DNA of 64,000 nucleotides from Rivularia sp. T60_A2020_040 (GTDB taxonomy: Bacteria > Cyanobacteriota > Cyanobacteriia > Cyanobacteriales > Nostocaceae): assembly GCA_015272215.1 (NCBI GenBank), contig JACYMD010000064.1, positions 1-64,000 on the forward strand. The letters run 5' to 3'. Below are positions 668 to 57,412 of this stretch, in pieces. How positions within the stretch are numbered: the stretch's first letter is position 1; every line of letters starts with the position of its first letter. The notes under the pieces were generated by a model. The model saw only the letters and a program-made list of their open reading frames with translations, was not told the origin of the DNA and did not search any database. Made by a program: the position numbers and the translations under genes.

Positions 668-3562
668 ATGCTTGAACTTTGGGGTGCTTTAGTTATTTTG
701 ATTTTCTGCCCCATTTTGGGAGGTTTACCAGTAATTTCTTGGATTACCAATGCTTCTTCTAAGCGTCGGTTAGCGGAAATTGGTACTGGTAATATTGGTG
801 TGAGTGCTGCTTTCTATCACGGTGGAACCTTGGTAGGAGTTCTTGCTGTTTTATCAGAAGCTCTCAAGGGAGTTATCGCTGTTTTAATAGCTCGCGCTTT
901 TTTTGGTAACGGTTCCTACTGGGAGTTGATTGCTTTAATTGCTTTGGTTATAGGGCGATTCTGGATGGGCAAGGGTGCTGGGACTACAAATGTTGTCTGG
1001 GGATTTGCGGTACACGATCCAATGGCAGCTGCTTTTGTATTTTTGGTTGGTAGTATCAGCTTTTTGCTTTTACGTTCTAAGGAATTAGCAAAATATGGGG
1101 TACTGGTTTTATTTCCGCTAATTGTAGCCATATTGCATTTTGACGATTTCGCGAAAATTTTGGCAGCGATTGTCTTAGCAGGGTTACTTGCTTGGATTTA
1201 CCAACAGATTCCCGACGATTTAAATTTAAAAGTATCTGAAGCTCAACCAGAGTCTCAGGCAATGTTTCAGTTATTACGCGGCAACCAAAAAATTCTTTCT
1301 CTCGATGATGAATTAGATGCTGCCATTGTGGGAAATAAAGCAGCTAGGTGTTCCGAAATCAAGCGTATTGGTTATCCGGTTCCTAAAGGTTGGGTGCTGA
1401 CTCCCATGGATGAACCTGAAATGTTGATCGATTATCTTCAACCATCAGATTTATCTCCCCTTGCAGTACGTTCTTCAGCTATAGGAGAAGATACGGAAGA
1501 AGCTTCCGCAGCCGGACAATATGAAACTGTTTTGAACGTCACTACAAAAGAAGGTTTATTACAAGCTATTAATACAGTTCGTGTTTCCTACGAACATCCA
1601 GATGCTGTTCAATATCGTCGCGATCGCCTTTGTCGCAGTGAAGCTGAAGGCAATTTCAAACAAGCTGCAATGGCGGTTTTGATTCAACAACAAGTTCAAG
1701 GGGTATTTTCTGGAGTTGCTTTTAGTCGCGATCCAATTACTCAAGAAAGCGATGCTGTAGTAATTGAAGCGACAGCGGGAAGTGCGGCTCAAGTTGTTTC
1801 GGGAAGATACACACCGGAACAATATCGGGCTTTTGTGGTTAAAACAGAGAATTTATCTTCTGTACATTTGGAAGGGGAAGGACAAATACCTGCTGTATTA
1901 ATCAAGCAAGTAGCCTACTTAACCAGGCAAATCGAACAATATTATCACGGTATTCCCCAAGATATTGAATGGAGTTATGACGGTCAAACTTTATGGATAT
2001 TACAAGTTCGTCCCATCACGACTTTATTACCGATTTGGACGCGCAAAATCGCCGCTGAAGTAATCCCCGGAATCATTCATCCATTAACTTGGTCGATTAA
2101 TCGTCCGTTAACTTGTGGTGTTTGGGGAGGTATTTTTGCCATAGTATTAGGGGAACGTGCGATCGGATTAGATTTTAATCAAACGGCGACGCTGCACTTT
2201 TCTAGAGCTTATTTTAATGCGAGTCTTCTCGGACAGATTTTCCGACGTATGGGTTTACCCCCCGAAAGTTTGGAATTTCTAACTAGAGGAGCCAAAATGA
2301 GCAAACCTCCTTTAAATAGTACTTTGTCAAATCTTCCCGGATTACTGCGGTTGCTCACCAGAGAATTCAGTTTATCAAGAGACTTTAAACGAGATTATCG
2401 CAAGCGATTTCAACCGGGTTTGACACAATTAAAACAACAATCGCTACTCGAACTTGACCAAGAGAGGCTTTTAGAACGAATTGAATTGATCTTAGAATTA
2501 CTTCGCAGCGCGACTTATTACAGTATTATGGCTCCTTTGAGTGCTGCGATTAGACAAGGGATTTTTAAACCAAAGGATAGTCAAATTGATAATAGTGCAG
2601 CTCCGGAAGTTGCCGCATTACGAGAACTTGGGCAATTAGCCTACTCTGCCAAATTAATACTACCGGATTTCGATCCAGAAACCCTATTTGAAGATTTGGC
2701 TGTTTCCACACCGGGACAAAAAATTCTTGAGCAGTTTGAAGTTTTTATTAATCGTTATGGTTACTTAAGTGATGTGGGAACTGATATTGCGGTTCCCACT
2801 TGGAGAGAAGAACCAGAAGCTGTCAAGCTGTTATTTGTGCAGTTAATGCAAGGAAACCAACCCCCCGCAAACAAACGTAAGCGAGGAGGAGTCGTACAAC
2901 GTCGTGTAGATTTAAAAGGACGAGTTACAGAAGTTTATTCTCAGTTATTAGCACAGTTACGTTGGTCTTTTATTGCTTTAGAAAGAAATTGGTTACAAAA
3001 TGGTTTGCTTCAACAACCTGGAGATATCTTTTTTCTCGAAATTGAAGAAGTACAAAAAATTATTCGAGATGCGGATGATCAATTAATCAATTATTTAAGC
3101 TCGTTGGTGCAAATGAGAAAAAACCAACTTACCGAAGATAGTCAACTCAATCCCGCACCGCTCTTAGTTTACGGTAATGCACCTCCCGTATCAATTTTTG
3201 TTCCTAGTTCTTCTCTGCTAGCGGATGGAATGTTAACCGGAATTCCTGCAAGTCACGGACAAGTTGAAGGTAGAGTTAAAGTGTTACGCAATTTACAATC
3301 AATTCCAGATATTGATAAGCAGACTATTTTGGTGGTTCCTTACACTGATTCTGGCTGGGCTGCTTTACTGACAAGGGCTGGTGGTTTGATTGCAGAGGCT
3401 GGTGGTAGACTTTCTCATGGTGCAATCATCGCTCGTGAATACGGGATTCCCGCAGTTATGGATGTACATAATGCCACTTGGTTATTACAAGATGGTCAGC
3501 GAGTACGAGTTGATGGTTCTAGGGGAATTATAGAGGTATCGAACGATTTACGACCAGATTGA
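668..3562 (+). CDS. PlsY-like membrane domain fused to PEP-synthase/PPDK-like domains, 964 aa
   Basis: Residues 1-185 are a multi-span membrane domain resembling the acyl-phosphate:glycerol-3-phosphate acyltransferase PlsY. It keeps a GTGNIG loop (39-44) and a GKGAGTT loop (101-107). Residues ~205-450 match the ATP-binding domain of pyruvate phosphate dikinase/PEP synthase: LAVRSSAIGEDTEEASAAGQ at 265-284 and WILQVRPIT near 446. The C-terminus is a swivelling phosphohistidine domain, GGRLSHGAII, with the expected catalytic His917. The middle (~460-860) is poorly conserved and helical, as in rifampicin-phosphotransferase-type relatives. The PlsY part is degenerate: the usual D..KG is EALKG, and the usual GH before the glycine-rich loop reads GR. 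The dikinase half looks catalytically intact; its acceptor is unknown. A heptameric repeat follows the stop. Confidence 0.8.
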   Translation: MLELWGALVILIFCPILGGLPVISWITNASSKRRLAEIGTGNIGVSAAFYHGGTLVGVLAVLSEALKGVIAVLIARAFFGNGSYWELIALIALVIGRFWMGKGAGTTNVVWGFAVHDPMAAAFVFLVGSISFLLLRSKELAKYGVLVLFPLIVAILHFDDFAKILAAIVLAGLLAWIYQQIPDDLNLKVSEAQPESQAMFQLLRGNQKILSLDDELDAAIVGNKAARCSEIKRIGYPVPKGWVLTPMDEPEMLIDYLQPSDLSPLAVRSSAIGEDTEEASAAGQYETVLNVTTKEGLLQAINTVRVSYEHPDAVQYRRDRLCRSEAEGNFKQAAMAVLIQQQVQGVFSGVAFSRDPITQESDAVVIEATAGSAAQVVSGRYTPEQYRAFVVKTENLSSVHLEGEGQIPAVLIKQVAYLTRQIEQYYHGIPQDIEWSYDGQTLWILQVRPITTLLPIWTRKIAAEVIPGIIHPLTWSINRPLTCGVWGGIFAIVLGERAIGLDFNQTATLHFSRAYFNASLLGQIFRRMGLPPESLEFLTRGAKMSKPPLNSTLSNLPGLLRLLTREFSLSRDFKRDYRKRFQPGLTQLKQQSLLELDQERLLERIELILELLRSATYYSIMAPLSAAIRQGIFKPKDSQIDNSAAPEVAALRELGQLAYSAKLILPDFDPETLFEDLAVSTPGQKILEQFEVFINRYGYLSDVGTDIAVPTWREEPEAVKLLFVQLMQGNQPPANKRKRGGVVQRRVDLKGRVTEVYSQLLAQLRWSFIALERNWLQNGLLQQPGDIFFLEIEEVQKIIRDADDQLINYLSSLVQMRKNQLTEDSQLNPAPLLVYGNAPPVSIFVPSSSLLADGMLTGIPASHGQVEGRVKVLRNLQSIPDIDKQTILVVPYTDSGWAALLTRAGGLIAEAGGRLSHGAIIAREYGIPAVMDVHNATWLLQDGQRVRVDGSRGIIEVSNDLRPD

Positions 3563-54784: not shown

Positions 54785-55180
54785 ATGTCATCAGAAATTT
54801 CAACTCCAGAAGGTATCTGGATTATTAGCGAAGAAGCATCAGAAACATCGACTTATGACGGTTCCAGGGGAAGTGGTGATAGGGGAGGAGTACTGGGAAC
54901 GGAAACTACTGAGGAAATAGTAGTAACTAAAAGACAAGGCGAAGTTGTTATTACCAAACGCAAAGTTGAGGTAAGTAAACTCAAAGGAGAAATGAGCAAG
55001 TTTCTGCAAGCAATGAGCGAAACTCTCGACGAAGCCGAAAACGCTAATTCCAAAATGCAGCTTGATGAAGTGGAGTTGTCGGTAGAAATTAATGGGGAAG
55101 GACAAATTAGCTTACTGGGAATTGGTGGTGGTAAAGCTGGAGGTAAAGGAGCAATGACGTTTAAATTCAAGCGGAAATAA
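54785..55180 (+). CDS. Pepco-like effector-associated small protein, 131 aa
   Basis: This is an acidic protein with a low-complexity Gly/Ser stretch (~25-40), a beta segment (EEIVVTKRQGEVVITKRKVEV), a helix (MSKFLQAMSETLDEAENANS) and a conserved tail DEVELSVEINGEGQISLLGIGGGKAGGK. The DEVELSVEI...G.GG tail is like the small Pepco/trypco2-type domains described as partners of caspase- or trypsin-like proteases in cyanobacterial conflict systems; the exact family name is from memory. It ends 12 bp before the orthocaspase start, so the two are almost certainly co-transcribed. It may be an adaptor or regulator of that protease. Confidence 0.6.
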   Translation: MSSEISTPEGIWIISEEASETSTYDGSRGSGDRGGVLGTETTEEIVVTKRQGEVVITKRKVEVSKLKGEMSKFLQAMSETLDEAENANSKMQLDEVELSVEINGEGQISLLGIGGGKAGGKGAMTFKFKRK

Positions 55181-55192
55181 TCGGCATATCAG

Positions 55193-57028
55193 ATGGGTAA
55201 AAATTCGGCGATCGCGATCGGCATAAATTACTATTACAATTTGCAACCGCTCAAGTATGCTCAGCGGGATGCTAAAGCTATGGAAAATTGGTTTAAGCAG
55301 GAAGCTAGGTTTGACCAGGTATTTCTTTTTACTGAAGATTCACAACCAATTCCGGCTTCTCCTCAACCAATACCAACTCAACCAAGCTTCGCTAATTTTT
55401 ACGGATTTTTAGAAAAACAGTTTGAAAAATCTTTGCTGAAACCAGAAGACAATCTCTGGTTTTTTTTCGCTGGTCATGGTAGGCGTTATAGAGACCAGGA
55501 TTATTTGATGTTTTTGGATAGCTCTCCCGCAGCAGTTGATAGAACGGCTATTTCTGTTGATTATGTAACCCAGCGATTGCGTCGCAGCGGTGCCGATAAC
55601 GTAGTGTTATTTATCGATGCTTGTCGTGATGAAGGGGACAGAGGAGGATTGGGAATAGGTGAGGAAGAACATCAAGGGGTAATTACTTTCTATTCCTGTA
55701 ATGCTTATCAAAAATCTTGGGAAATTGATGCATTGAAACACGGAGCATTTACCTATGCTTTATTGGAAGGATTAAACTTACGGGGGGAAGGTAATTGTGC
55801 TACGGTTGAGCGTCTGGCAAGACATTTGTATCACAGAGTTCCACAATTAAATACTAATCACCAACAGCAATTACAAAATCCATACTTCAAGGCAGATCCA
55901 CCTTATAAAATGTACTTTATTTTATTAAAACAGTCTGCCACTTTCCAAGATGCACAACCTTTAATTGATCAAGCACAGGAAGCAGAATTGGATGGAGATT
56001 TATTATTAGCAGAAACTTTGTGGCAAAGACTTTGGGGAATACCAGGTGTTGATAGACGGGCATTTGCTGCGATTAAAAGGATTGCAGTTAAAAAGACAAC
56101 ACAAAACCAAATTCCAACTCAAAAACCCATTATTCCAACTCCTGAAACCGCTACTTCATCAAGAGGAGTTACACCTACTGAAACTCCATCCACTCAAGAA
56201 ACTAAATTAAAGGTTTTTCCCTTTGAGGTGGTTACAGTAAATTCCAGTGGTCAAGAAGTAAAGCGAGAGCAAGGTGAAGCTGAATATTTTACCGAAGACT
56301 TGGGTAATGGTGTAATTCTAGAAATGGTATCGATTCCTGGTGGTTCATTTAAAATGGGTTCGCCACCAGAGGAAAAGAATCGAAGTGACACTGAAAGTCC
56401 ACAGCATGATGTAACAGTCCCCGCTTTTTTCATGGGTAAGTTTGAAGTCACCCAGGAACAATATCAACAAGTGATGGCTAAAAATCCATCTAATTTCAAG
56501 GGAGATAAGCGTCCTGTGAAAACAGTTAGCTGGAATGATGCAGTGGAATTTTGCAAAAAGTTGAGTCAAAAGACAGGACGTACTTATCGTTTACCCAGCG
56601 AAGCTGAGTGGGAATATGCCTGTCGTGCTGGTACAACTACACCATTTTACTTTGGTGAAACGATTACTAGTGAATTAGCTAATTATCGCGCCAGCAACAC
56701 CTATGCTTTGGAAGCAAAAGGAGTATTTAGGGGAGAAACTACTCCAGTAGGAAAATTTCCACCCAACGGTTTTGGGCTATACGATATGCACGGAAATGTA
56801 TGGGAGTGGTGTCAAGATACTTGGCATGATAATTACAATGACGCACCTACAGATGGGAGTGCATGGATTAATAATGATAATCCTTATCGTGTGCTGCGCG
56901 GTGGTTCTTGGTTTAATAATCCATATTACTGCCGTTCCGCGTCTCTCTTCAACAGCAATGAGCGTGACAAAGATGTTCTCAACGTTTTTGGTTTTCGTGT
57001 GGTGTACGTTGTCGAGAGGACTTCTTAG
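55193..57028 (+). CDS. Orthocaspase (C14) fused to FGE-sulfatase/C-type-lectin domain, 611 aa
   Basis: Residues 1-240 are a caspase-fold peptidase. His95 (FFAGHGRR) and Cys144 (FIDACRDEG) form the catalytic dyad, with acidic residues around it as in bacterial metacaspases that cut after Arg or Lys. A proline/threonine-rich linker (~300-345) precedes a formylglycine-generating-enzyme/C-type-lectin-like domain (~363-611) with GGSFKMGSP, RLPSEAEWEYACRAGT, NGFGLYDMHGNVWEWCQD and VLRGGSW. The last ~32 residues look like a DGR variable region, so this domain probably displays a variable ligand-binding face that controls the protease. It is the second gene of a two-gene operon with the Pepco-like protein. 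Confidence 0.88.
   Translation: MGKNSAIAIGINYYYNLQPLKYAQRDAKAMENWFKQEARFDQVFLFTEDSQPIPASPQPIPTQPSFANFYGFLEKQFEKSLLKPEDNLWFFFAGHGRRYRDQDYLMFLDSSPAAVDRTAISVDYVTQRLRRSGADNVVLFIDACRDEGDRGGLGIGEEEHQGVITFYSCNAYQKSWEIDALKHGAFTYALLEGLNLRGEGNCATVERLARHLYHRVPQLNTNHQQQLQNPYFKADPPYKMYFILLKQSATFQDAQPLIDQAQEAELDGDLLLAETLWQRLWGIPGVDRRAFAAIKRIAVKKTTQNQIPTQKPIIPTPETATSSRGVTPTETPSTQETKLKVFPFEVVTVNSSGQEVKREQGEAEYFTEDLGNGVILEMVSIPGGSFKMGSPPEEKNRSDTESPQHDVTVPAFFMGKFEVTQEQYQQVMAKNPSNFKGDKRPVKTVSWNDAVEFCKKLSQKTGRTYRLPSEAEWEYACRAGTTTPFYFGETITSELANYRASNTYALEAKGVFRGETTPVGKFPPNGFGLYDMHGNVWEWCQDTWHDNYNDAPTDGSAWINNDNPYRVLRGGSWFNNPYYCRSASLFNSNERDKDVLNVFGFRVVYVVERTS
56909..57004 (+). other. Candidate DGR variable region (VR) in the orthocaspase gene
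   Basis: Codons 573-604 span W573...GFRVV. The scaffold (GGSW, CRSA, ER, GFRVV) is fixed, while intervening codons read F-N-N, Y-Y, S-L-F-N-S-N and K-D-V-L-N-V-F. This matches the usual DGR lectin-fold VR, where AAC/AAT codons of a template are replaced by mixed residues. The template and reverse transcriptase are not in this window. Confidence 0.75.
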
Positions 57029-57412
57029 TAGTTCTTCATACTCTAGCCCTTTTGCTCTTTGTTCTTTTATTTTGTACCCTTTGTAAGCGTAGCGTTAAAA
57101 TTTTTTTCAGAAATTGAGGTTATGTAGGACTTATATTTTTTCCGCTTATATCGGAATGATAAAAAATATGATCGAAAAAAACTCTGCGCTCCTTTGCGTT
57201 TCCCTCTGCGCTCCTCTGCGTTAAAAAAAATATAATTCCGATGCCAACGGATTTGATATTACGCTACAAGTATTGTAACCACATACAAAATTTATTAAAG
57301 CGTCACAGCACCCTACGAGTAAAATATGCCAGTATCGCATTAACTGGGATTGCCACGTTACGCTACGCTCCACTCGCAATGACATCTTACATTTTATTGC
57401 TTCAACCTTCCC
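57029..57412. other. Intergenic region downstream of the variable region
   Basis: A pyrimidine-rich stretch (CCCTTTTGCTCTTTGTTC, near 57048) and GTAAGCGTAGCG directly follow the VR, in the place where cis-acting elements for mutagenic retrohoming lie in DGRs. A CTCTGCGCTCC-type repeat occupies 57180-57225. I see no gene in the rest. Confidence 0.5.

What the first reader, a model, noticed from the sequence alone, without database searches (positions are those of the whole stretch)
56909..57004. DGR-type variable region in an orthocaspase, with no reverse transcriptase in reach
Codons 573-604 of the caspase-FGE protein have the fixed scaffold of cyanobacterial diversity-generating retroelement targets (VLRGGSW, NPxxCRSA, GFRVV). 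Where template-encoded residues are usually AAC/AAT-derived Asn, here they are scattered F, Y, S, L, V and K. The pyrimidine-rich tail just after the stop is also in the place of the usual homing signals. I find no RT, Avd or template repeat anywhere in 64 kb, so if real this is a target diversified in trans from a distant element. The outcome would be a protease whose sensor face is hypermutated.
Basis: partly seen in the sequence, partly recalled or inferred. Interest (0 to 1): 0.88.

Follow-up and report, generated by a model that had tools for sequence, protein, structure and literature searches.

The report
Retired hypermutation target in a protease
This cyanobacterial cell-death-type protease carries a sensor patch of the kind that special genetic elements hypermutate, but no such element was found in its genome and the patch is identical in a sister species, so it looks like a once-diversified sensor that is now fixed.

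Summary
Codons 573-604 of the orthocaspase-FGE gene (55193-57028) are a variable region (VR) of the cyanobacterial diversity-generating retroelement (DGR) type. The pyrimidine-rich tail after the stop is real: a profile built only from tails of targets beside DGR reverse transcriptases (RTs) in other genera hits the window once (57029-57094, E=2.3e-10; next E=17) and the 6.02-Mb genome once. Relatives G007 and G006 are 85% and 83% identical up to the VR but share 9 of 24 and 9 of 21 VR residues. Yet whole-genome searches found no DGR RT, Avd or template. In sister genome G005 the VR is identical (0 of 96 bases differ, within a 173-bp identical block) against 3-4% divergence in the flanks. Best reading: a retired target, diversified by a DGR since lost, now a fixed sensor. 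In the genus, 1 of 8 genomes keeps DGR RTs; another keeps a template with most of its RT deleted. In the family, 101 of 154 genomes with the tail have no detected DGR RT. An RT-less remnant target is already in print; the family-wide tail and the scale of RT-less targets I did not find in the papers searched.

The parts
54785..55180 (+). Pepco-domain gene directly upstream, probable partner
   Evidence: PF24393 E=1.7e-30
55193..57028 (+). orthocaspase-FGE gene, 611 aa
   Evidence: ORF; PF00656 and PF03781
55205..55894 (+). caspase (Peptidase_C14) domain; GHG and DAC motifs present
   Evidence: aa 5-234; motifs; that they form the catalytic dyad is recalled
56321..57004 (+). FGE / C-type-lectin-fold domain, proposed sensor
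   Evidence: aa 377-604, E=6.7e-63; solved relatives include Treponema denticola variable protein 1, 2y3c, E=2.4e-26
56909..57004 (+). DGR-type variable region, identical in G005
   Evidence: 0 of 96 bases differ; VR differs in other relatives
56851..57023 (+). 173-bp block identical in G005
57029..57094 (+). pyrimidine-rich element found after DGR targets of the family
   Evidence: profile hit E=2.3e-10; only hit in the genome

Best explanation
A retired DGR target. The gene encodes a caspase-type effector fused to a lectin-fold sensor. In an ancestor the last ~32 codons were rewritten by a DGR: an RNA copy of a template was reverse transcribed with errors at adenines and the cDNA replaced the end of the gene, guided by its 3' end and perhaps by the pyrimidine-rich element behind it. 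The DGR has since been lost from this lineage, and the sensor is now a fixed surface inherited unchanged by the sister species. Shown: VR anatomy, downstream element, no detectable DGR machinery, identity in the sister, difference in other relatives. Inferred: that the ancestral changes were made by a DGR (no matching template survives), that selection keeps the surface, that it senses an invader, and that binding activates the caspase.
For: Tail profile from RT-adjacent targets of other genera hits here alone. Up to the VR 85% and 83% identity to G007 and G006 relatives, but 9 of 24 and 9 of 21 VR residues shared. The syntenic G003 locus keeps a VR scar that fits a template (18 of 33 A, 7 of 66 other positions differ, p=4.9e-6). 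No DGR RT, Avd or template found in G000. VR identical in G005. In the genus: two DGRs in G004, a deleted RT with intact template in G002 whose target still fits it (18 of 32 A, 2 of 67 other, p=2.5e-9), an Avd fragment in G001.
Against: No template fits this VR well (p=0.013), so DGR origin rests on indirect evidence. Only one close ortholog was available. The identical stretch is longer than the VR, which hints at recombination rather than selection alone. VRs of RT-less genomes are no more decayed than those of RT-bearing ones (median 5 in both, 36 and 29 VRs, one-sided p=0.86), so general decay does not support long retirement; the window's VR at 14 equals the largest value in either set.
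Confidence: 0.8

Rival explanations
1. Still diversified in trans by a DGR on a plasmid or contig missing from the draft assembly, or present only in some strains.
For: The assembly is a draft of 139 contigs. Trans diversification and remote targets are described elsewhere (PMC10907252 and PMC7517822, passages). The downstream element is intact enough to score.
Against: 100% estimated completeness and no RT, Avd or template found; the sister genome also has no DGR RT and an identical VR. It does have one weak Avd-like hit (20 bits, cut-off 80), not followed up.
Confidence: 0.06
2. Never a DGR target: an ordinary FGE paralog whose C-terminus resembles the scaffold because all FGE domains share it.
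For: The scaffold is general in this domain; the template fit is weak; the codon bias is not exclusive.
Against: FGE paralogs of other types do not appear among the 16 tail hits of the genus, whereas this gene does; 13 of those 16 follow a readable VR-type end and two more follow VR remnants. The VR is scrambled against relatives whose preceding domain is 83-85% identical.
Confidence: 0.08
3. The VR block is identical in the two species because of recent recombination between their lineages, not because of a long freeze.
For: The identical block is 173 bp, longer than the VR, and has no synonymous change; at 4% divergence none in 173 has probability 0.0009.
Against: Flanks on both sides differ by only 3-4%, so the VR looks vertically inherited and the caspase interior (23% different) looks like the replaced part; none in 96 has probability 0.02 at 4%. 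Either way nothing shows DGR action since.
Confidence: 0.3

Closest known systems
Cyanobacterial DGR variable proteins with orthocaspase N-termini and their remote copies (Vallota-Eastman 2020, PMC7517822)
   Same: caspase N-terminus, lectin-type C-terminal domain with the VR at the gene's 3' end; one Nostoc paralog (all3226) is reported with remnant TR-VR homology and no RT nearby
   Different: all3226 lies in a genome with two DGRs; here no DGR RT was found anywhere in the genome and the VR is shown identical in a sister species
FGS-domain conflict systems (Kaur et al. 2021, PMC8195603)
   Same: lectin-fold FGS sensor with caspase-type and other effectors, proposed invader sensing, often associated with DGR parts
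   Different: no STAND NTPase was detected by Pfam in this protein; the neighbour is Pepco, a term not found in that text
BPP-1 phage DGR target site (Guo et al. 2011, PMC3240598)
   Same: a short element just downstream of the VR, outside TR-VR homology, belongs to the target
   Different: there a GC-rich hairpin is required; here a pyrimidine tract, whose role is untested

Membership tests
complete DGR | DGR reverse transcriptase | tested here: not met
   none at E<=1e-40 with a congener's DGR RT; RVT_1 hits are intron-type, fragments or a 12-bit match
complete DGR | accessory protein Avd | tested here: not met
   NF033474: 0 hits in G000 at E<=0.01
complete DGR | template repeat matching the VR except at adenines | tested here: not met
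   the one 2-mismatch site in G000 (C53) is non-coding and does not continue as a template
DGR target diversified in trans | VR fits a template elsewhere in the same genome | tested here: not met
   as above
DGR target diversified in trans | VR varies among close relatives or cells | tested here: not met
   0 of 96 differences from G005; within-population variation not testable here
DGR-type variable protein | C-terminal lectin-fold domain with VR scaffold at the gene's 3' end | tested here: met
DGR-type variable protein | VR differs between relatives while the domain before it is conserved | tested here: met
   G006, G007; not so for G005
DGR-type variable protein | adenine-specific differences from a template | tested here: inconclusive
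   best of 25 templates p=0.013 with 15 of 67 non-A mismatches
orthocaspase | Peptidase_C14 domain with His and Cys motifs | tested here: met
   activity not testable with these tools

The most novel reading that the evidence does not exclude
The pyrimidine tract after the stop is the cis-acting homing mark of this cyanobacterial DGR clade and is kept by targets after the RT has gone. DGRs then act as visiting mutators that come and go, while marked sensors stay behind, fixed but ready to be diversified again. In this family most genomes with marked targets (101 of 154) would be between visits.
Probability: 0.3. Interest if true: 0.75.

Novelty: new member of a known kind. Interest (0 to 1): 0.5.

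Why it matters
Whether a hypermutated bacterial sensor can be retired to a fixed specificity has been suggested (PMC7517822, section 6) but is hard to test. This genus offers stages side by side: intact DGRs, a cassette with most of the RT deleted and the template kept, and genomes with targets only. The downstream element gives a search handle for DGR targets when no RT or template is at hand, and suggests that such orphan targets are common in this family.

Tried and rejected
A search for a template with the VR itself gave the gene, four FGE paralogs and ten short weak matches. RVT_1 hits were followed through their ORFs and judged by eye. A first template-VR comparison cut many templates at the wrong base and was replaced. 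The test for more decay in VRs of RT-less genomes failed. A 2-mismatch match to the template start in G000 (C53) was read out: non-coding, no template-like continuation. Weak Avd matches in G001, G002, G005 and G006 (20-29 bits, cut-off 80) were not followed up. A hairpin behind the tract is visible by eye in several relatives and not in the window; not tested. One non-FGE end (L137) of 30 harvested ends was dropped before the tail profile was made. No structure was predicted. The genus-wide VR table holds 58 ends, including two or three chance or frameshifted reads (L015, L043) that I did not use.

Papers: PMC7517822 sections 5 and 6 plus passages; passages only of PMC10907252, PMC3240598, PMC3610870, PMC7159879, PMC8195603, PMC3521204, PMC8867640. 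Statements that something was not found in print rest on searches in an open-licence library; most subscription papers are not in it.

Full report
What is there. The finding lies at the 3' end of a 611-aa gene (55193-57028) with an N-terminal caspase domain and a C-terminal FGE domain, directly after a Pepco gene. Among solved structures the best match of the FGE part is PvdO (5hha, E=3.5e-47); a DGR variable protein, Treponema denticola variable protein 1, is second (2y3c, E=2.4e-26).

The tail. From 29 stretches around DGR RTs of other genera (L115-L143) I could read 29 complete FGE gene ends in 26 of them (30 ends harvested, one non-FGE end dropped). The ~60 bases from the stop on are pyrimidine-rich with a common pattern. 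A profile from these alone hits the window at 57029-57094 with E=2.3e-10; next best E=17, and best on the reversed window E=3.7. A sequence-only model of the same ends hits the 6.02-Mb genome once, here (E=2.3e-8), and the 8 genus genomes 16 times at E<=0.01. Of the 16, 13 follow a readable RGGSW-type end (one of them, G002:C152, frameshifted), two follow VR remnants (G002:C130; G007:C560 at a contig end), and the weak partial hit in G001 follows none.

Machinery. RVT_1 gives 5 hits in G000 at E<=1: four are intron-type or fragments by inspection of their ORFs, one is at 12 bits. A DGR RT from congener G004, which lies beside an Avd over cut-off, finds RTs in 56 of 217 family genomes at E<=1e-40; in the genus only G004 (1 of 8), and not G000. 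Avd: none in G000; in G004 two full copies and a fragment; one truncated copy just over cut-off and one fragment in G002; a fragment in G001; further weak matches in G001, G002, G005 and G006 were not followed up. The pattern 'VR base or A' over 56909-56971 with up to 3 mismatches finds only the VR itself. A template-start pattern finds G002 once and G004 twice exactly; in G000 it finds only a 2-mismatch, non-coding site that does not continue as a template. The G002 template region finds in G000 two gene ends, this VR and a paralog on C5, and two short matches outside the template part.

Stages in the genus. G004 has two DGRs with Avd, RT and template. G002:C158 has the start of Avd followed directly by the end of an RT and an intact template; the rest is deleted. 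A G002 target still fits that template: 18 of 32 adenines and 2 of 67 other bases differ, p=2.5e-9. G001 has a broken Avd. G000, G003, G005, G006 and G007 have tail hits but no DGR RT.

Was this VR made by a DGR? The comparison works on known pairs: over 19 RT-adjacent VRs with their own templates, 276 of 570 adenines and 2 of 1023 other positions differ, with a codon gap in two. For the window's VR the best of 25 templates leaves 15 of 67 non-A mismatches and a 3-base gap; with a shorter stretch its score is 14, equal to the largest among 36 VRs from RT-less and 29 from RT-bearing genomes. So no template for it survives among those held, and the case is indirect: scaffold, tail and relatives. 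Over 166 aligned residues up to and including RGGSW, the G007 and G006 relatives are 85% and 83% identical, yet share 9 of 24 and 9 of 21 VR residues, largely scaffold; G005 is 87% identical and shares 26 of 26. At the syntenic place in G003, recognised by the same neighbouring genes, a VR scar remains that fits a template of type L136 (18 of 33 A, 7 of 66 other, p=4.9e-6). Codon endings are a weak sign (7 of 7 against 44 of 80; some paralogs that look DGR-free score 7 of 8 or 8 of 8).

Is it still changing? The two genes differ at 331 alignment columns, gaps included, none of them in the VR. By segment: Pepco 16 of 396, caspase 167 of 720, linker 76 of 405, FGE before 56851 64 of 533, block 56851-57023 0 of 173, tail 4 of 66, spacer 10 of 306. 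At 4% divergence none in 96 has probability 0.02 and none in 173 has 0.0009. The region is at least as conserved as its flanks, the opposite of hypermutation. The caspase part is the divergent one; I read it as replacement of the gene's interior in one lineage, and recombination of the VR block remains possible.

How common. At E<=1e-6 the tail is found in 154 of 217 family genomes; 53 of these have the RT at the cut-off and 101 do not; three RT genomes have no tail hit. By hand from the lists, 34 of 49 tail-bearing assemblies with at most 10 contigs lack the RT, so draft gaps alone do not explain it. I fetched one listed high-scoring hit from each of 40 RT-less genomes (not a random sample): 36 tails directly follow a VR-type end by my pattern; of the other four, three show VR-like DNA and one only its 3' end. 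Limits: the RT cut-off, few candidates scored per genome, and no Avd or template search outside the genus. VRs from RT-less genomes fit foreign templates as well as those from RT-bearing ones (median 5 in both; one-sided p=0.86), so either loss is recent in many genomes, or some RTs were missed.

Mechanism and comparison. Most likely this is a caspase effector whose lectin-fold face binds a ligand, as proposed for FGS conflict systems (PMC8195603, passages), with the face set in the past by a DGR. PMC7517822 already reports orthocaspase-type variable proteins (passages), and a paralog with remnant TR-VR homology and no RT nearby, suggesting loss of the machinery after a good variant is selected (section 6). 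In phage BPP-1 a short hairpin element just downstream of the VR is required for homing (PMC3240598, passages); the pyrimidine tract here sits in a comparable place, but its role is untested. So the kind is known; the family-wide tail and the scale of RT-less targets I did not find in the papers searched.

Noticed in passing
window 55193-56317: The caspase domain and linker differ from G005 by 23% and 19% while both flanks differ by 3-4%, which suggests replacement of the gene's interior in one lineage.
   Followed up: partly
L172 (G002:C158), about 1100-1640, minus strand: A DGR cassette in which the start of Avd runs straight into the end of the RT, followed by an intact template: a deletion that removed most of the RT.
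   Followed up: partly
L054 (G003:C1 near 5481200): At the syntenic place in G003 only a VR scar and the tail remain, between the same neighbouring genes.
   Followed up: partly
L004, L035, L036, L037, L049, L050, L110, L158: One FGE paralog type (RGGSWFNVPRFCRSALRYK) is present in all 8 genus genomes with a nearly unchanged C-terminus and without a tail hit: a DGR-free control inside the same family.
   Followed up: partly
G000:C5:8027-9916 (L002, L030): A second orthocaspase-FGE gene, 62% identical, with a VR-like end but no tail hit; no match to it among the G005 hits listed.
   Followed up: no
L043 / L174 (G002:C152): A VR-type gene end broken by a frameshift, with its tail intact.
   Followed up: no
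alignment A1 (RT-adjacent tails): The tail looks like a loose repeat of about 7-8 bases (xxCCTTT), reminiscent of short tandem repeats of heterocystous cyanobacteria (recalled).
   Followed up: no
G000:C12, C136, C99, C11 (L016-L019): Intron-type RT genes or fragments close to contig ends, as expected if repeats broke the assembly.
   Followed up: no
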